From IMG/VR virus record IMGVR_UViG_3300033150_002504, positions 1-23,662 of that record: a stretch of DNA of 23,662 nucleotides. One strand, written 5' to 3'. The translations under genes were made by a program, and so were the position numbers. Under the pieces are notes generated by a model. That model was not told where the DNA came from. It worked only from the letters and a program-made list of their open reading frames with translations, and ran no database searches. The stretch's first letter is position 1; each line of letters begins with the position of its first letter. Origin of the DNA: a virus. Below, one piece after another: positions 4,902 through 23,628 of this stretch.

Positions 4902-5624
4902 TTAGATTCTTCCCTCTTTCCTCAACCTCACTAAAAGAGGGTCTATCTTTCCAAGTTCATTAAAGGCCTTATTACGAATCATACAGCTTTCACATCCATA
5001 AGAGATTCGCTGGATTCTTTCTAGGGGTAAATCTTTCGAATTCTTCGGCACAAAGCAGGGAATTTCCGATTCATAACAGCTTATCGTATACTCAAATGGC
5101 ACACCTAATTCAAATCCCATCTGAACAATCTCCTTTTTGGACAAATACTGTAGAGGATAATGAATCTTGATCTTAGAACCTAAAGCTAGCGAAATGGCTT
5201 TCTCTGCTGCTACAAGAAAGCCTTCTCGACAGTCATAGTAATGAGAGTAGTCAATTACATTAGTACCAATTACGATATCGTAGATCTTGCGAGGAAAGCC
5301 ATAACTTGCCGCTGAGACTAAAAAGAGAAGATTTCTGCCAGGTACAAACGTATTAGGGACTCCATCTGAACCATGCTTAGGAATTTCAAGATTGTCATCA
5401 GTAAGAGAAGATCCGCTAAATACGCCAGGACCACAGGTGTAAAACATGTGCTCCTTGAGTTTTAGCTTGTCCTTCACTCGATGTGAACAAAGAATCTCGT
5501 ACGGATTCTTCTGACCGTAGTCTATAGAAAATGCTGTTACCTCTTTAAAGCGTTTAGTAGCCCAGAAAAGACAAACCGTACTGTCAATTCCTCCTGACCA
5601 AAGAACCACACAACTTTGTTTCAT
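4902..5624 (-). CDS. queC: QueC-like 7-cyano-7-deazaguanine (preQ0) synthase
   Basis: ATG 5624 has GGAGG 7 bases upstream and overlaps the dpdA stop as ATGA; the in-frame start ten codons earlier is unsupported. The 240-aa product has the ATP-pyrophosphatase loop SGGIDST (10-16), FSIDYGQKN after it, FVPGRN in the middle, and a C-terminal cysteine set (SCYESEIPC, then YGCESCMIRNKAF) matching the QueC zinc site. QueC converts 7-carboxy-7-deazaguanine to preQ0 using ATP and ammonia. Upstream enzymes (FolE, QueD, QueE) are not in the window, so the substrate must come from the host or from elsewhere in the phage genome. Pairing with a DpdA-like enzyme points to DNA rather than tRNA modification. 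Confidence 0.9.
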   Translation of the reverse strand: MKQSCVVLWSGGIDSTVCLFWATKRFKEVTAFSIDYGQKNPYEILCSHRVKDKLKLKEHMFYTCGPGVFSGSSLTDDNLEIPKHGSDGVPNTFVPGRNLLFLVSAASYGFPRKIYDIVIGTNVIDYSHYYDCREGFLVAAEKAISLALGSKIKIHYPLQYLSKKEIVQMGFELGVPFEYTISCYESEIPCFVPKNSKDLPLERIQRISYGCESCMIRNKAFNELGKIDPLLVRLRKEGRI

Positions 5625-6415
5625 TTCTCGTCCTCCGTTATATATGAGTCCCAACCGGCACCACCGGCTAGGTTAATCGCTTTCATATTCTTGATCAGGT
5701 ACTCATCCCGAAAGTAAAGCATATCATCTAAACTTAACTTACTGAAGTCTTCTCTTTCAAAATGAATATTTTCCCATAACTTCACCCGATGTTTAGTAGC
5801 TACATATGCAACTGAGGAATCGAATGAAAATACGAAAGGGAATTTACTCTGGACAATCAACTCATCTGGATTGCCAGATCCTAGTAAGTGTAGTCGTTTC
5901 TGAGTCAAACCTAGCCTGTAAAGTAATTTGACGAAGAAGATTCGATTTGGGGCTACACCTCTTTTACCGGTAATCTGTGAGAAGCATCTTTCACAAACTA
6001 AAAATGAGAGACCAACGAAGTCAATTTCTGGGGTGAGATAGAGTTCTAGGAAGCACTTCAGAATTTCTGCTGGAGTCCTCCCTTGAACCGGTCCTAATAG
6101 TTTCAAGTCTTTAGGAGGGTGCTTCAGGAATTCCTCATAATTGTTTAGTGTCGCTTTCATATCATAAAAGACGTCCGGAAGTACCAAAACGTCGGCGTTT
6201 ATCTGATAGGCAACTTCTGTCAACTCTTTAAAATCAACTGGCTTTCCTCTCTCGTAAGCACCATTGTCAAGGATCGTCCACTTTGGCACTCTCTCTGTCA
6301 CCAATTTCTTGTAGGTCGGATTTCGTAGGAACTCATGAGCTAAAATTAGATACCCGTCGCTATACTGTTCCTGCAGATGAAAGTACGTGATAGGTAGGGT
6401 GTGAATAATCTTCAT
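5621..6415 (-). CDS. dpdA: DpdA-like 7-deazaguanine DNA transglycosylase
   Basis: The 264-aa product has the features of phage DpdA proteins, distant relatives of tRNA-guanine transglycosylase: WTILDNGAYERGK (LDNGAYE, 49-55), VLVLPDVF (D81), LLGPVQGRT, then a barrel-like LHLLGSGNPDEL and FSFDSSVAY. DpdA enzymes exchange guanine in DNA for a 7-deazaguanine such as preQ0 and so shield phage DNA from restriction. ATG 6415 follows GGGAGGAG and overlaps the upstream stop as ATGA; the gene overlaps queC in the same way. The order Nmad1-dpdA-queC forms one translationally coupled module. The exact base installed cannot be read from sequence. Confidence 0.85.
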   Translation of the reverse strand: MKIIHTLPITYFHLQEQYSDGYLILAHEFLRNPTYKKLVTERVPKWTILDNGAYERGKPVDFKELTEVAYQINADVLVLPDVFYDMKATLNNYEEFLKHPPKDLKLLGPVQGRTPAEILKCFLELYLTPEIDFVGLSFLVCERCFSQITGKRGVAPNRIFFVKLLYRLGLTQKRLHLLGSGNPDELIVQSKFPFVFSFDSSVAYVATKHRVKLWENIHFEREDFSKLSLDDMLYFRDEYLIKNMKAINLAGGAGWDSYITEDEK

Positions 6416-10735: not shown

Positions 10736-13117
10736 TCACCACCACTCATTATGAACTCCTAACTCAATTCCGAGCTTAATGCCAATCTTTGGTAGTCTAA
10801 AGTCGAAGGAATCTCTCACTATTTCTTCGACTTTTTTGACCTCATCTTCTGGGCACTCAATGTAAAGAGCATCATGCAATGAGGTAACTATTCCTGATTT
10901 CAAGCCCATCTGTTTCAATCTCTGGTGAATCAAGATGGTCACTAGAGAAAGAACATCACTGGTCGTAGACTGTGGGAGAAAGTTAATAGCCTGTCTTTCT
11001 GCCTCTGCAATTGCAGCCTGTGAAGATTTTGTCAGACCATATCTAGGGAGAAACTTTATCCATGGAAATCGTCTCTTTCTTCCAAAAATATTGACAATTT
11101 CACCCTCTTGAAAGATTTTTCTTCTTTGATCATCCATCCAAGTTTTAATTTTGGGATAGCGACTGAAGAACTTCTCGTAGAAAGATTCTGCTTTATCCTT
11201 AGGAATTCCGATCTTTTGAGCAGATCCAGATGGTGTTGAACCATAGAGTAGAGAGAATACAAGTGCTTTGGCCACCATTCTGTCTTCCCGAGTTGGCTTT
11301 TGACCAGGAGGTGTAATACCAAAGTTACTAGCGGTATTTGAATGGAAGTCGCTCGCTTTTAAATCGTCAAGTAAGGTCTCATCGTGTGCGTAACCAGCAG
11401 CAATATGTAATTCTGCTCTATTGATATCAACGCCCAATATCCTCCATCCGTCTTCCGGTTTGAACATCCAACGAATACGTGTGCTACCGTCTCGTGGCAA
11501 GTTTTGAAGATCAGGTCTACTGGAACTCAGACGGCCGGAGGTGGTGCCAAAGACTCGAAAATCAGAGTGGATTCTACTATTCTTATCTAGAAATCTTTTA
11601 ATACCACCATTACCATCAGTACCATCGACGAATGTACTCTTCAACTTCTCTAATTTCTTCAGTTCAGCTATCTCAGCGATGACCTTATCTTTTCTAGCAA
11701 ATCGTTCTAAAACCTCTTTGTCGGTCGATGGCTTACCTGTTTTTGTCTTCTTGAAAGGGGTGAAGCCTTTCTTACTGAAGAGTAAGTCAGACAGTTGCTT
11801 CGGCGAACGATGATTGAAGTCTTTTCCGCATGCGGTTTTTATCGCTTTCGTCTTCACTTCAATTCTCTCTGCCAATTCTTTTGAGACAATCTTCAATCTT
11901 TCGGGATCTACTCTCATTCCTCTTTCTTCGACATCAACCAAAGTCAACATTAATGGCATAGCAAGATTCTCAAATAACCAGCGAACACCTTCCTTATCCA
12001 ACTGAGGCTCTAAGGCTTGCATAACACGGAAGGTAGCGATCGCATCTAGTGCATTGTATTTGTAAAGAACTTCTGAGGGAATTTCGGAAAATGAACCTTT
12101 CGTTTTCGAAGGAACGTACTTTTTGATCTCCAACTCGTAAGGGCCTAAGTTTGTATAACGGAGGGTGAGATTAGTCAGTGAAAGTGGTACATTTTCGTCG
12201 ACTACATGTTGTGCGATAATAGTATCGAATACTAAATTTTTGATATAGACCCCGATTTGCCTTAGAAACAGCAAGTCAAAAGGTGCATTGTGCGCCACGA
12301 ACCCTACGTTAGAAGAAGCTAATCTTCTCAAGTGCTGAACAACTGGTTGAGGATCATCCCAGAATGGTACCATTCCCTGTTTATAGAAAGGGATACAATA
12401 ACCTTCTTTTCCATTTGGAGAAAAAGCAATACTGAGGATTTTTCCAGTTACCCAAGAGAATTGATTAGTCTCAGTATCGAAAGTGACTCGATTGAACTTC
12501 ATCAGATAATCAACCAGTGAGGAGACCTGTTCTAAAGTTCGAGCGACGTAAATAGGCGGATCATCTAATTCCGGTCCTTGTTTTATTAAACGCTTAAAGA
12601 TAAAGAAGTCCGATCGTAGTTGTGGTAACAGTTCCGGCCGTCTTAGAATAGCAGCTGGATGCAACGTGAAAAAGGCATGACATTGAAACTCCGGAAGGAA
12701 TCTCCAAGATCCGTGCAGATCAGTAATGCCCGTTAGGTTAGCCAGTGATTTGGCAGCGATGTTTCCTAAACTCAAGATCCATTTTGGCTTGATATGATTG
12801 ATCTCTTCTACTAGATATGGACGACAACACGATATATTGGAGGCGGTTGGGGTGAAGTTTCGAGGGCTCTTGAGAATCTTCGAACAGCGCACAGCGTTAG
12901 TAACAAACACCTCACTACGAGGCAAGCCAATATCGTCCAACAATTTATTCAAAAGCTGTCCCGCAGGTCCGCAAAAGGGAATACCTTGTCGAAGCTCATG
13001 CGCGGCAGGACTTTCTCCTACTACGAGTATCTGCGCTTGTTTATTACCTGCGCCATGAATAGGGCCATCATAATCTTTTAAAGTGCACGCTTCACAACCT
13101 TTCTTTTTGCTTTTCAT
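10736..13117 (-). CDS. polA: Uracil-DNA-glycosylase-like domain fused to DNA polymerase I
   Basis: The 793-aa product has three parts. Residues 1-180 form a family-4-type UDG domain: C8 and C11 with C78 and C97 or C98 as probable iron-sulfur ligands, GESPAAHELRQGIPFCGPAGQ (34-54; E35 and E41 kept, the usual PG glycine replaced by alanine) and HPAAILR (153-159). Residues about 190-380 form a 3'-5' exonuclease (DTE 214-216, FVAHNAPFDLLFL, YNALDA). The rest is a family A polymerase: SGRLSSSRPDLQNLP, motif A DINRAELHI, O-helix R..AKALVFSLLYG, and motif C SLHDALYIE, in which the usual HDE glutamate is alanine. There is no 5'-nuclease domain. It is the phage replicative polymerase. ATG 13117 lies 12 bases after the Cse60-like gene. 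Confidence 0.92.
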   Translation of the reverse strand: MKSKKKGCEACTLKDYDGPIHGAGNKQAQILVVGESPAAHELRQGIPFCGPAGQLLNKLLDDIGLPRSEVFVTNAVRCSKILKSPRNFTPTASNISCCRPYLVEEINHIKPKWILSLGNIAAKSLANLTGITDLHGSWRFLPEFQCHAFFTLHPAAILRRPELLPQLRSDFFIFKRLIKQGPELDDPPIYVARTLEQVSSLVDYLMKFNRVTFDTETNQFSWVTGKILSIAFSPNGKEGYCIPFYKQGMVPFWDDPQPVVQHLRRLASSNVGFVAHNAPFDLLFLRQIGVYIKNLVFDTIIAQHVVDENVPLSLTNLTLRYTNLGPYELEIKKYVPSKTKGSFSEIPSEVLYKYNALDAIATFRVMQALEPQLDKEGVRWLFENLAMPLMLTLVDVEERGMRVDPERLKIVSKELAERIEVKTKAIKTACGKDFNHRSPKQLSDLLFSKKGFTPFKKTKTGKPSTDKEVLERFARKDKVIAEIAELKKLEKLKSTFVDGTDGNGGIKRFLDKNSRIHSDFRVFGTTSGRLSSSRPDLQNLPRDGSTRIRWMFKPEDGWRILGVDINRAELHIAAGYAHDETLLDDLKASDFHSNTASNFGITPPGQKPTREDRMVAKALVFSLLYGSTPSGSAQKIGIPKDKAESFYEKFFSRYPKIKTWMDDQRRKIFQEGEIVNIFGRKRRFPWIKFLPRYGLTKSSQAAIAEAERQAINFLPQSTTSDVLSLVTILIHQRLKQMGLKSGIVTSLHDALYIECPEDEVKKVEEIVRDSFDFRLPKIGIKLGIELGVHNEWW

Positions 13118-15279: not shown

Positions 15280-15453
15280 TTAATATGTCACTTTATTCCT
15301 GGAACGCTTAGCATTTGTTATCTGCTTTGCGATTTCGTTACCGATTCGCAGTGCCTTTTTGTGTTGACTGGGCGTCATATCCAAATGTGGTTTATGCAAG
15401 ACTTCAGAAGCGAAGTAAGCATCTTTTTCATCTAGTTCTATTTTGACTTTCAT
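15280..15453 (-). CDS. Small hypothetical protein (57 aa)
   Basis: ATG 15453 (MKVKIELDEKDAYFASEVL) has GGGAGG 5 bases upstream; the frame extends to 15501, but that part would overlap the repeat array. The product starts with a beta strand and continues with basic helices (SQHKKALRIGNEIAKQITNAKRSRNK). It is the first gene downstream of the TIGR-like array on the minus strand. No family was recognised. Confidence 0.62.
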   Translation of the reverse strand: MKVKIELDEKDAYFASEVLHKPHLDMTPSQHKKALRIGNEIAKQITNAKRSRNKVTY

Positions 15454-15487
15454 GAAATCCTCCCTTGGGCAACCGCTCCATACGCTC

Positions 15488-15937
15488 GGGTTACTCTTCA
15501 TTCACGGCTCGCACGCATTATATGGGTTGCTGAGAATTAATGGCTCGCTTAAAGTATATGGGTTACTTTGCTTTCACGGCTACTGTCGATGTAGAATCTT
15601 GTCAACTTGATGAAGGCCTTGTCGTAAACCTCTCAACCGTTCGCTCATTTATTACGGGCTCCTCAGTAAACTTGACTCGCTCTCTTATTTGGTTTTCTAA
15701 GTGTCATGGCTCGCTGCAGAAGGATGGGTTACTCTTTTTCTTCGACTCACTCAGATAAAATGGGTTCCTCTATAATTATGGTTCGCTCTAGATATACGGG
15801 TTTCTCTCGGAAAATGGCTCGCTCGATTCTCTTGGATTACTAGATACAAACGGCTGTTTCGCTCAAAAGCTCATGGAGTTCTCATTTTTAAGGGCTCGCT
15901 TATTTTACATGGATTCCTAACGCTCTTCGGCTCGGTT
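15488..15937. repeat. TIGR-like array: alternating 9-bp repeats with 9-bp spacers
   Basis: About 23 repeats stand every 18 bases (plus strand). Class A, GGGTTACTC: 15488, 15524, 15560, 15656, 15726, 15762, 15798, 15834, 15875, 15911, and a short form at 15692. Class B, GGCTCGCTC: 15506, 15542, 15638, 15674, 15708, 15744, 15780, 15816, 15856, 15893, 15929, and a degenerate copy at 15578. The classes alternate strictly where intact, giving 36-base units. Spacers are 9 bases and unrelated (ttcattcac, gcattatat, agaattaat, aaagtatat, tgctttcac, cagaaggat, tataattat, tcggaaaat). About 51 bases (15587-15637) are decayed, and a few units differ by 1-4 bases. This geometry matches TIGR arrays, whose 36-nt tigRNAs carry two 9-nt spacers between edge and loop repeats. 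The array touches the stop of the tas-like gene. Confidence 0.85.
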
Positions 15938-16668
15938 CACTTGTCGATGAAGTCCCAAGGGTCTAAGAAGTGATTATGCCCTAACTGCTCAATAGCGTAT
16001 GGTTTTGAGATAGGTAATCCCGCCTCTTGTCTCCAAACAAGCCACAGCGATGCCAAAAAGACCTTCATCATTTTTCTTCTAGCCATATTATCCAGGTGGC
16101 CTTCACTAATAACCCCTTCTGGCTCGTACTTTTTGCCTCTCTCATCCCTAGGAAGTTCACTTGCAGGAAGAATCTTGAAGTTCGCGTTTCGAAATCTTTT
16201 TCGATACTTCTCTTTCTCTTTGATATAGTACTGATAGAACTTGCCTTTTCCCCGAATCAAGCATGTACCCAATCTCCAAACCATAGTACGCAAAGTCTTG
16301 TTGTAGCTGAGTTTTTTGCCTTTTTGTGGCTTAGGGGCTTTCCCGTTTTCAACACTCATGCCGGCAAACTTCCACAAGCTCGAGATGTGAGGTGCTTTTT
16401 CAATATCAATTAAACCTATTACTTTACTTATGTTTTCTGCACCGACTCCTTTTATCCTGCTGAACCAATTTTGAGCTGGATGAACTTCAAGCTTTTCGGC
16501 AATTATCTTGTTCATGTAGTCTTCCAGACTCCTCAAACGCTCTTCCAACTCAATAGTCGTTGTATCTTTTTTCCCGTTTCTGCTCAAATGTGTATTCCTA
16601 GTTTGCATAGCAACGCGCAACTTTTCAACGCGGAGACCTGTTTTTACCAGAAATGGCAAACCTTCCAT
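15937..16668 (-). CDS. tasA: TIGR-associated (Tas) Nop-domain protein, TasA-like
   Basis: The 243-aa product matches the C-terminal (Transposase_20) part of IS110 transposases, which is related to the Nop domain of box C/D RNP proteins. It has a coiled-coil helix (TTIELEERLRSLEDYMNKII, 37-56), a helix-hairpin-helix (IKGVGAENISKVIGLI, 72-87), LWKFAGM (99-104), KTLRTMVWRLGTCLIR (124-139) and a basic C-terminal helix region (ARRKMMKVFLASLWLVWR). The N-terminal DEDD nuclease domain of IS110 is absent, and no RuvC or HNH is seen. This is the composition of stand-alone TasA proteins, which bind tigRNA. ATG 16668 follows AGGAGGTGA. A dedicated promoter lies just upstream and the spacer array starts at its stop codon, so gene and array are probably one transcript. 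Confidence 0.85.
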   Translation of the reverse strand: MEGLPFLVKTGLRVEKLRVAMQTRNTHLSRNGKKDTTTIELEERLRSLEDYMNKIIAEKLEVHPAQNWFSRIKGVGAENISKVIGLIDIEKAPHISSLWKFAGMSVENGKAPKPQKGKKLSYNKTLRTMVWRLGTCLIRGKGKFYQYYIKEKEKYRKRFRNANFKILPASELPRDERGKKYEPEGVISEGHLDNMARRKMMKVFLASLWLVWRQEAGLPISKPYAIEQLGHNHFLDPWDFIDK

Positions 16669-16712
16669 ACTTTAGTTCACCTCCTCTCAATTTAAATTCA
16701 TTCTAATAATAA

Positions 16713-16739
16713 TTATAGTTGAACTCAAAAAAATTTCAA
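16713..16739 (-). promoter_or_regulatory. Promoter for the tas-like gene and array
   Basis: On the minus strand TTGAAA (about 16734-16739) precedes a perfect TATAAT (16713-16718) by about 16 bases. It sits in the only gap between the primase stop and the tas-like gene, with a leader of about 40 bases and a strong ribosome binding site. The hexamers equal those of the ssb and helicase promoters. Confidence 0.75.
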
Positions 16740-16744
16740 GTGTT

Positions 16745-21474: not shown

Positions 21475-22814
21475 TCACAGATTTTGGCATTCAGCTTTTT
21501 GTAGTCGGCAATTCGTTTTTTGGAGTGTTGTAGAAGATATGTGTTAGTCTCATCATAGAAATCATAAACTATAAGGCGTGGAAATTTGACATCGTAACGC
21601 ATTCCTCTGCCTAATCTCTGGATCGATTGGATGGTAGACTTACCACCAGCGGCAATGATTATGACATTTAAGTTTACAACATCAACTCCTTCACCCCAGA
21701 TGTTAGACACAACGATCAGCTTTTCCTTCTTTTTCCGAAATTTCTTTAACGATTCTTGCCTGTATTCAGTCGGTTGGCCTCCATAGACGAAAGGACACCC
21801 TAACGTTTTAGAAAGAATCTTACCATGCTCAATTTCTCGTACTAAGATTACTGTACTTAGATTAGGATGTTTGCGTGCGATTCCCACAATCATCTCATTT
21901 CTAACTTTGTTATGAACGATGCCATACTTCCTTGCTTCCTCGTATTCACAGTTTAGTTTGGGCTCCTTTACTGAAATGATGAACACCTCAGGACGAAGTA
22001 GTAATTTTTTCTGAATCAAAGGCTCTGCTGATAGTTTGAAGATTATCGGGCCTAATGCAGCAACAGTAAGCATATTCTTATTGTCATCTCTGTCCAAAGA
22101 AGTTGCTGAAAGACCATAACGAAAAGGTGCTGGAATTTTCATTAGAACTTTGTAGAGTGTTTTAGACGCGATATGGTGACACTCGTCAGTCACTACTACC
22201 TTTGTGGATCTGAGTAGCTTTTGAACCTTCGATGTATCCAGTTGTGAGACAAGAGTTTGAAAAGAGGCAACAGAAACTTTTTCCGGAGAAAAGATTCCAT
22301 CTCCAATTTTGCCGACTTTATTCAGATTCTCTCTCAGGACATCCACCGTTTGATAAAGCAACTCTTTCCGGTGTACCAGGAACAATGTCGGCTGGTCGAG
22401 AGACTTAATTAAAGAGACACTCATAACTGTCTTTCCTGATCCTAATGCACAATGAAAGATCCCTCTTCTCTTAGCTAGACCAACTCGAACAGCTTCTTTT
22501 TGATAGTCTCGTAGCGGCGGTTTCGTATCGAAGCGTGGTTGTACGAGTGCGGGCTCATTGTGAGAGATGACTAAGACTTTGAGCCCGCATCTATGTAATA
22601 CCTCCCGCACTCGAGGCAGGAGGCCTGAAGGGAAGGTGTGAAAGCGTTTTGAGTAAAGATGTCGTACTCCATTCCACCGACCTTCTTTGTATGCAGTGCT
22701 AAAGTAGTATCCTTTAGCGCGGAAAGAGGTGGCCTGATCTATAATTGATTCCAATCTCCTCTCAGGATTTAAGACTTTGCTATAAATTGGTCCCTCAAGA
22801 ATCTCTACGCGCAT
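21462..22814 (-). CDS. UvsW-like superfamily 2 DNA helicase
   Basis: ATG 22814 (MRVEILEGPIYSKVL) has AAGGA 6 bases before; the frame is open 15 codons further but with no ribosome binding site. The 450-aa product has an N-terminal DNA-binding region with GYYFSTAYKEGRWNGVRHLY, followed by LRDYQKEAV (Q motif), Walker A ALGSGKT (123-129), DECH (210-213), GLSATSL and, in the second RecA domain, VVSNIWGEGVDV and QRLGRGMR (motif VI). This is the T4 UvsW layout: ATP-driven branch migration, fork regression and clearing of R-loops during recombination-dependent replication. The homing endonuclease gene overlaps its start. Confidence 0.85.
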   Translation of the reverse strand: MRVEILEGPIYSKVLNPERRLESIIDQATSFRAKGYYFSTAYKEGRWNGVRHLYSKRFHTFPSGLLPRVREVLHRCGLKVLVISHNEPALVQPRFDTKPPLRDYQKEAVRVGLAKRRGIFHCALGSGKTVMSVSLIKSLDQPTLFLVHRKELLYQTVDVLRENLNKVGKIGDGIFSPEKVSVASFQTLVSQLDTSKVQKLLRSTKVVVTDECHHIASKTLYKVLMKIPAPFRYGLSATSLDRDDNKNMLTVAALGPIIFKLSAEPLIQKKLLLRPEVFIISVKEPKLNCEYEEARKYGIVHNKVRNEMIVGIARKHPNLSTVILVREIEHGKILSKTLGCPFVYGGQPTEYRQESLKKFRKKKEKLIVVSNIWGEGVDVVNLNVIIIAAGGKSTIQSIQRLGRGMRYDVKFPRLIVYDFYDETNTYLLQHSKKRIADYKKLNAKICEVSN

Positions 22815-23628
22815 TATAAATCCTTTTTCTGACTTCCCATTTATATTTATAGCACTCAACCGGACATGGACCTATATAGTCTAAAAAGTCTTCAGTTGAC
22901 TTAGCAGAGAGTTGGATCCTATTATCTTTAGTCTTCCATGCTAGGAATCCGAGTTCTCTTAGCATTCTCGTCAAACGTACGACCTCTTCAACCTCAAAGC
23001 ACATACAACATAACCTGATAAATCTGTCTCTTTTATTAAGGTGTCCGTCCCCGAGATACCACTGTCTTACCGTTAATGGAGTTAGTTTCAAGTCTTCAGG
23101 TAAAATTTTGATCCATTTCTTTCGCCTTCCCGTGCTGAATCTCTCATCAGGTTTTGCTCTTCTATACCATTTTCTTTGTAAGAGACCCAATTCGATATAA
23201 TTCTTACTATCCAATCGAAAGGCGGTGTGGGTTCTGCCATCCATGAGGTTAGTAACTTTTTTCCGGATTTTCGACGTCTGTATCCCGAAATCAGTAAGGA
23301 TAGTAGATAACCAGGTGAGATAGCTCCTTTGCGTTGTACCATAACTGAATCTGGCAGAGGATTCACCAACTGGTGTTAGTGATCCGTCTCCTAATAGCTC
23401 TCCAGTTAAGAACTCTAAAGCTTGGGGTGTTAAGACGACGTGATTGCATCTCGCTAGAGCGCTTGCTTTGGTTCGGACGCGTCTCTTTATGCTGTATCTT
23501 TTCAACCAGCGACAGATTGTGGTGCTATCGACCTCGCACTCCTTAGCAATCTGATAAGTAGACTTTTCTTTGACTGCATATTCCGTCCGAAGCCATGCTT
23601 CGTTCTTGTACCTACATTTCTTTTTCAT
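22795..23628 (-). CDS. LAGLIDADG homing endonuclease with N-terminal HTH
   Basis: The 277-aa product carries an N-terminal HTH (YAVKEKSTYQIAKECEVDSTTICRWLKR, 18-45) and two LAGLIDADG motifs: ALEFLTGELLGDGSL (about 70-84) and LTVRQWYLGDGHL (about 184-196), each with the catalytic acidic residue in GDG. It is thus a monomeric double-motif enzyme, probably active. Such enzymes cut intron-less or insertion-less alleles and copy themselves in. Here it stands free upstream of the UvsW-like gene and overlaps it by 20 bases, without visible intron or intein borders. ATG 23628 has AAGGCAG before it. The upstream gene lies beyond the window. Confidence 0.85.
   Translation of the reverse strand: MKKKCRYKNEAWLRTEYAVKEKSTYQIAKECEVDSTTICRWLKRYSIKRRVRTKASALARCNHVVLTPQALEFLTGELLGDGSLTPVGESSARFSYGTTQRSYLTWLSTILTDFGIQTSKIRKKVTNLMDGRTHTAFRLDSKNYIELGLLQRKWYRRAKPDERFSTGRRKKWIKILPEDLKLTPLTVRQWYLGDGHLNKRDRFIRLCCMCFEVEEVVRLTRMLRELGFLAWKTKDNRIQLSAKSTEDFLDYIGPCPVECYKYKWEVRKRIYNARRDS

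What the first reader, a model, noticed from the sequence alone, without database searches (positions are those of the whole stretch)
15488..16740. A TIGR-Tas-like RNA-guided system in a phage genome
A stand-alone Nop/Transposase_20-domain protein with its own promoter is followed, at its stop codon, by an array with exactly the geometry of TIGR arrays: two alternating 9-base repeats and unrelated 9-base spacers, 36 bases per unit. Seen in sequence: periodicity, alternation, spacers, gene and promoter. Known: TIGR-Tas systems use Nop-domain Tas proteins and 36-nt tigRNAs with two 9-nt spacers that address the two strands of DNA without a PAM. Inferred: this locus makes such RNAs. It would be easily mis-annotated as an IS110 transposase next to a minisatellite.
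Basis: partly seen in the sequence, partly recalled or inferred. Interest (0 to 1): 0.97.

Follow-up and report, generated by a model that had tools for sequence, protein, structure and literature searches.

The report
Phage TIGR-TasA RNA-guided locus
An uncultivated virus carries a nuclease-free version of TIGR-Tas, a recently described RNA-guided DNA-binding system, which standard annotation would label a transposase next to anonymous repeats; it is a genuine but ordinary new member of a family already known from many phages.

Summary
The 243-aa protein (window 15937-16668, minus strand) scores 175 bits against NCBI's TIGR-Tas model (cut-off 100) and does not match the IS110 model. Its nearest solved structures by sequence are TasR and TasH, and its confident AlphaFold model (pLDDT 92.5) matches TasH and TasR ahead of IS110 recombinases. 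It has no nuclease domain, so it is a solo-Nop TasA.

On the same strand, starting at the stop codon, lies a dual-repeat array (15470-15937) with alternating ~9-nt edge (GAGCGAGCC) and loop (GAGTAACCC) repeats and ~9-nt spacers at 36-nt period. These repeats match those of the experimentally validated Salicola phage CGphi29 system and of about 65 related loci. In about 1.6 Mb of relatives' DNA no such array was found away from a tas gene.

Corrections: the array is worn (a 51-nt irregular stretch, three off-length spacers, one enlarged repeat), no terminator follows it, and the protein is a binder, not a nuclease. No spacer pair hits this contig or related viruses above chance, so the target is unknown. 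Most likely role: an RNA-guided DNA-binding block aimed at a host or rival element. Known kind; moderate-low interest.

The parts
16712..16739 (-). sigma-70-like promoter TTGAAA-16-TATAAT upstream of tasA
   Evidence: consensus scan, 11 of 12 positions; predicted only
16678..16685 (-). ribosome-binding site AGGAGGTG, about 9 nt before the ATG
   Evidence: read directly from the sequence
15937..16668 (-). tasA: 243-aa solo Nop-domain Tas protein (coiled coil about residues 4-59, then Nop/Transposase_20-like domain)
   Evidence: NCBIfam NF052498 175 bits, cut-off 100; PDB sequence hits TasR and TasH; AlphaFold pLDDT 92.5 and Foldseek to Tas structures
15470..15937 (-). dual-repeat TIGR array: edge GAGCGAGCC and loop GAGTAACCC alternating, about 9-nt spacers, 22 spacers parsed, 11 loop-centred spacer pairs
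15929..15937 (-). first, 5'-degenerate/truncated edge repeat (AACCGAGCC) overlapping the last base of the tasA stop codon
15587..15637 (-). irregular 51-nt stretch interrupting the repeat register
   Evidence: no significant similarity to the tasA 3' end
15470..15478 (-). last, 3'-degenerate edge repeat (GAGCGGTTG), followed by the next gene's ribosome-binding site; no terminator found
15280..15455 (-). downstream ORF of about 57 aa of unknown function, start codon shortly after the array
   Evidence: ORF; no convincing Pfam or PHROG family

Best explanation
This is a TIGR-TasA locus of an uncultivated virus. Shown: a nuclease-free Tas (solo Nop) gene, and directly downstream on the same strand a dual-repeat guide array of the TIGR type. 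Inferred from TIGR-Tas biochemistry (PMC12045711): gene and array are co-transcribed, the array is cut into ~36-nt tigRNAs, and a TasA dimer uses spacer A and spacer B to pair with opposite strands of one ~18-bp DNA site, unwinding and bending it. Having no nuclease, it most likely acts by occupying the site, blocking transcription or replication, rather than cutting. The targets are not in this contig or its relatives, so a host or a competing element is the most likely target (inferred).
For: NF052498 TIGR_Tas at 175 bits over a cut-off of 100, IS110 model not hit. PDB sequence hits TasR 1.9e-22 and TasH 3.3e-15; profile 2.7e-32. Foldseek top 11 hits all TasH/TasR (TM to query 0.65-0.77); IS110-type recombinases next with E>=4e-3 and TM about 0.5. 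Array geometry and significance. Same repeats in the validated Salicola CGphi29 locus (L003: AGCGAGCCA/AGACAACCA) and about 65 relatives. Arrays found only beside tas in about 1.6 Mb. No N-terminal HNH or RuvC: the chain starts at the coiled coil and aligns without the HNH extension. Sits in a starred 17-row clade of Tas proteins in which no HNH was detected.
Against: No expression, processing or binding data. Array repeats are more degenerate than in most relatives, with an irregular stretch, so some units may be dead. No terminator after the array, unlike typical TIGR arrays. No spacer-pair target found in own or kin DNA. Blocking without cleavage by TasA is only a suggestion in the literature.
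Confidence: 0.88

Rival explanations
1. A TIGR-TasA locus in decay: the protein is intact, but the array is eroding and most units no longer give usable tigRNAs.
For: Mean repeat identity to consensus is third lowest of 68 loci in the automatic parse (0.71; about 0.80 when counted by hand on the parse), a 51-nt irregular stretch, one enlarged repeat, off-length spacers.
Against: Open frame without stops, family-invariant residues kept and a confident fold; most edge and loop repeats keep GAG...CC; some relatives have comparably variable repeats (L004 0.80, L133 0.81).
Confidence: 0.2
2. A fragment of an IS110-family transposase (as Pfam/PHROG labels suggest) beside an unrelated minisatellite.
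For: Weak Pfam Transposase_20 (E=0.036, below cut-off) and a PHROG family labelled transposase (5e-39).
Against: The IS110 NCBIfam model does not match while the TIGR-Tas model does; fold nearer to Tas than to IS110 recombinases; arrays with the same repeats accompany the gene in nearly all relatives and were found only there.
Confidence: 0.02
3. A TasA-array unit used for regulation of the virus's own genes rather than against other DNA.
For: TasA lacks a nuclease; spacers are AT-rich (26% GC against 41% for the window), as promoters often are.
Against: No spacer pair matches its own 23.7-kb contig better than mispaired controls; in 1376 pairs from the family, matches of at most one mismatch in own and kin viral DNA are fewer (8) than with two wrong geometries (20 and 16). 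The contig may be incomplete.
Confidence: 0.07

Closest known systems
TIGR-TasA (solo Nop Tas with dual-repeat array, e.g. Flavonifractor plautii FpTIGR; Faure et al. 2025, PMC12045711)
   Same: single nuclease-free Nop protein; adjacent array of alternating short repeats with ~9-nt spacers and 36-nt period; the family is common in viruses
   Different: array repeats more degenerate, one irregular stretch, no terminator found; targets and activity untested
TIGR-TasH of Salicola phage CGphi29 (SpTIGR; PDB 21kl, 9w04)
   Same: homologous Nop part (26-28% identity), array downstream of the gene, practically the same edge repeat AGCGAGCCA and a similar loop repeat
   Different: TasH has an N-terminal HNH nuclease; the window protein does not
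TIGR-TasR (PDB 9mty)
   Same: Nop domain similar in sequence and fold (1.9e-22; TM to query 0.70)
   Different: TasR carries an N-terminal RuvC nuclease; absent here
IS110/IS621 bridge-RNA recombinases
   Same: distantly related Transposase_20/Nop RNA-binding domain
   Different: no DEDD RuvC domain here, IS110 family model not matched, guide array instead of one bridge RNA

Membership tests
TIGR-Tas | Nop-domain protein of the Tas family | tested here: met
   NF052498 175 bits, cut-off 100; TasR/TasH best PDB sequence and fold hits
TIGR-Tas | array of two distinct alternating 8-12-nt repeats with ~9-nt spacers | tested here: met
   edge GAGCGAGCC and loop GAGTAACCC, 19 of 22 spacers 9 nt, lag-36 and lag-18 peaks, model score 157 against at most 21 in shuffles
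TIGR-Tas | array adjacent to the tas gene | tested here: met
   array begins at the stop codon; in relatives arrays were found only beside tas
[quoted passage not shown]
   both repeats start (G)AG and end CC[A/G], as in SpTIGR and relatives; pairing not tested structurally
TIGR-Tas | array starts and ends with truncated edge repeats, followed by a terminator | tested here: inconclusive
   first and last edge repeats are degenerate/truncated, but no terminator was found; the array runs into the next gene's ribosome-binding site
TIGR-Tas | processing into 36-nt tigRNAs bound by Tas | not testable with these tools
   needs small-RNA sequencing
TIGR-Tas | tandem-spacer targeting of both DNA strands | not testable with these tools
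   needs binding assays; no natural target found
TasA subtype | no fused HNH or RuvC nuclease | tested here: met
   243 aa, starts at the coiled coil; HNH extension absent in the alignment; no nuclease domain hit
IS110 transposase | N-terminal DEDD RuvC catalytic domain plus C-terminal Transposase_20 domain | tested here: not met
   no DEDD/RuvC domain; Transposase_20 below cut-off; NF033542 not matched
CRISPR-Cas | single repeat of about 25-40 nt with longer spacers and cas genes | tested here: not met
   two short alternating repeats; no cas effector or adaptation gene among the window proteins searched

The most novel reading that the evidence does not exclude
A nuclease-free TasA uses AT-rich dual-spacer guides to bind and bend host or rival-element DNA, acting as a multi-site RNA-guided repressor during infection, with arrays evolving by reshuffling whole spacer-pair units rather than by spacer acquisition.
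Probability: 0.25. Interest if true: 0.7.

Novelty: new member of a known kind. Interest (0 to 1): 0.38.

Why it matters
It adds a virus-borne TasA whose array tandem-repeat software misses and whose protein general family databases call a transposase (NCBI's model instead calls it an endonuclease, which a nuclease-free TasA is not). Natural targets and array growth of TIGR systems are open questions; the comparison made here gives two testable statements: spacer pairs show no enrichment for targets in their own or related viruses, and in one group of viruses the loop-centred spacer pair looks like the inherited unit, reshuffled between arrays.

Tried and rejected
Spacer targets: none above controls in the window, in 1.59 Mb of own and kin viral contigs with 1376 pairs, or for the related L134 array in 393 kb of its Nomurabacteria MAG. 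Two of the most widely shared spacer pairs of the L018-L032 group gave 0 and 4 exact hits in IMG/VR, about what chance gives by my rough estimate. Idea that point variants of shared pairs fall in one codon phase: no clear support. Idea that the 51-nt irregular stretch is a copy of the tasA 3' end: not significant. Single-sequence search for close relatives in IMG/VR: none; alignment-based searches succeeded. Rfam and tRNA scans: nothing. No similar DNA in known phages and none for the tas-array stretch in plasmids. The IS110-fragment reading was rejected.

Full report
WHAT WAS CHECKED. The window is a whole IMG/VR virus record of 23,662 bases, of unknown completeness.

THE ARRAY IS REAL. Self-match at lag 36 is highest at this place in the whole window, and lag 18 peaks there too. 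A parse on the minus strand gives 24 repeats from 15937 down to 15470: edge repeat consensus GAGCGAGCC, loop repeat GAGTAACCC with a variable fourth base, and spacers of which 19 of 22 are 9 nt. With a repeat model drawn from the family as a whole the minus strand scores 157, the plus strand 14 and shuffled windows at most 21. The array is worn: one edge repeat has a 4-nt insertion, three spacers are 8 or 10 nt, and a 51-nt stretch at 15587-15637 breaks the register. Tandem Repeats Finder does not call it. It begins at the tas stop codon with a truncated edge repeat and ends just before the ribosome-binding site of a ~57-aa ORF; no terminator was found on that strand. A good sigma-70-like promoter precedes the gene.

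THE PROTEIN IS A TAS PROTEIN WITHOUT A NUCLEASE. Pfam gives only a sub-threshold Transposase_20 match and PHROGs a family labelled transposase. The specific evidence is clear: NCBIfam NF052498 (TIGR-Tas) matches at 175 bits against a cut-off of 100, the IS110 model does not match, and the best PDB sequence matches are TasR 9mty (1.9e-22) and TasH 21kl (3.3e-15) (profile 2.7e-32). The AlphaFold model has mean pLDDT 92.5; its eleven best PDB fold matches are all TasH or TasR chains, with IS110-type recombinases next and weaker. The chain begins at the coiled coil and lacks the N-terminal HNH of TasH, so in the published scheme (PMC12045711) it is TasA. In the tree it groups with Tas proteins in which no HNH was detected, in a starred 7-row set and a starred 17-row set that include viral contigs and contigs binned to Aenigmatarchaeota, Dehalococcoidales, Nomurabacteria and Cloacimonadota (loci).

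RELATIVES CARRY THE SAME KIND OF ARRAY. Alignment-based searches found 46 viral loci, 15 more hits of which two repeat earlier loci, and 9 in MAGs. In nearly all, a 36-nt-period array with edge RAGCGAGCC(A)-like and loop RAG-AACCC(A)-like repeats lies beside tas, including Salicola phage CGphi29, whose array and TasH were tested experimentally (PMC12045711). Exceptions are loci where tas is cut by a contig end (L132, L136) and the distant L017. In about 1.58 Mb of fetched relatives' DNA the detector found no array away from a tas gene.

TARGETS. From the published overhang geometry I deduced the target form 5'-spacerA-revcomp(spacerB)-3' with a 0-2 bp gap; this is my deduction, not a quoted rule. 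No pair of this array fits its own contig better than mispaired controls. For 1376 pairs of the family against 1.59 Mb of own and kin viral DNA, matches with at most one mismatch number 8, against 20 and 16 for two wrong geometries; some hits are redundant, so this shows absence of enrichment rather than proven avoidance. One MAG test was also negative. Targets are therefore probably in hosts or unrelated elements, which is inference.

MECHANISM. Shown: gene, array, family and predicted fold. Inferred from the published biochemistry: co-transcription, processing to ~36-nt tigRNAs, dimeric TasA binding one tigRNA, and pairing of the two spacers with opposite DNA strands. Because no nuclease is present, blocking of transcription or replication by binding and bending is the most likely action, as the discoverers suggest for TasA; this remains untested.

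SIDE RESULT. In nine related viral loci (from L018 to L032) loop-centred spacer pairs are shared between arrays as units (23 of 130 distinct pairs in at least two loci, against 6 of 147 edge-centred pairs) and at different positions. That suggests the tigRNA unit is what is inherited and reshuffled. Near-identical loci were partly removed but relatedness was not modelled. The window shares no spacer with any other locus in that comparison.

VERDICT. The finding is correct and well interpreted. It is a new member of a known kind: the discovery paper reports 21,385 Tas proteins, and whether this very locus is among them could not be checked.

Noticed in passing
L018-L032, L039 arrays: Loop-centred spacer pairs recur in related viruses as intact units in shuffled order with point variants (23 of 130 against 6 of 147 edge-centred pairs), suggesting arrays evolve by reshuffling whole tigRNA units.
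   Followed up: partly
L134 4607-4758 and 5737-5944: Two arrays flank one tas gene in a Nomurabacteria contig and share an early unit while the rest differ, as if one array were seeded from the other.
   Followed up: no
window 15470-15937 and 64 loci: Spacers are AT-rich (26-29% GC here against 41%); in 56 of 64 loci spacer GC is below locus GC, and in 62 of 64 purines exceed half, though the last position, a repeat edge, adds to the purine excess.
   Followed up: partly
window 4902-5654, 2212-2838, 5621-6415: QueC and a queuosine-precursor transporter, with a neighbouring ORF of unknown family that looks transglycosylase-like by eye: the virus may make or import 7-deazaguanine for DNA or tRNA modification.
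   Followed up: partly
window 10736-13117: Family A DNA polymerase with an N-terminal uracil-DNA-glycosylase-like domain in one chain.
   Followed up: no
window 22795-23628: LAGLIDADG homing endonuclease ORF overlapping the start of a helicase gene.
   Followed up: no
NCBIfam NF052498 on window 15937-16668: The model names its members 'RNA-guided endonuclease' although it matches nuclease-free TasA proteins such as this one, so automatic annotation will mislead.
   Followed up: no
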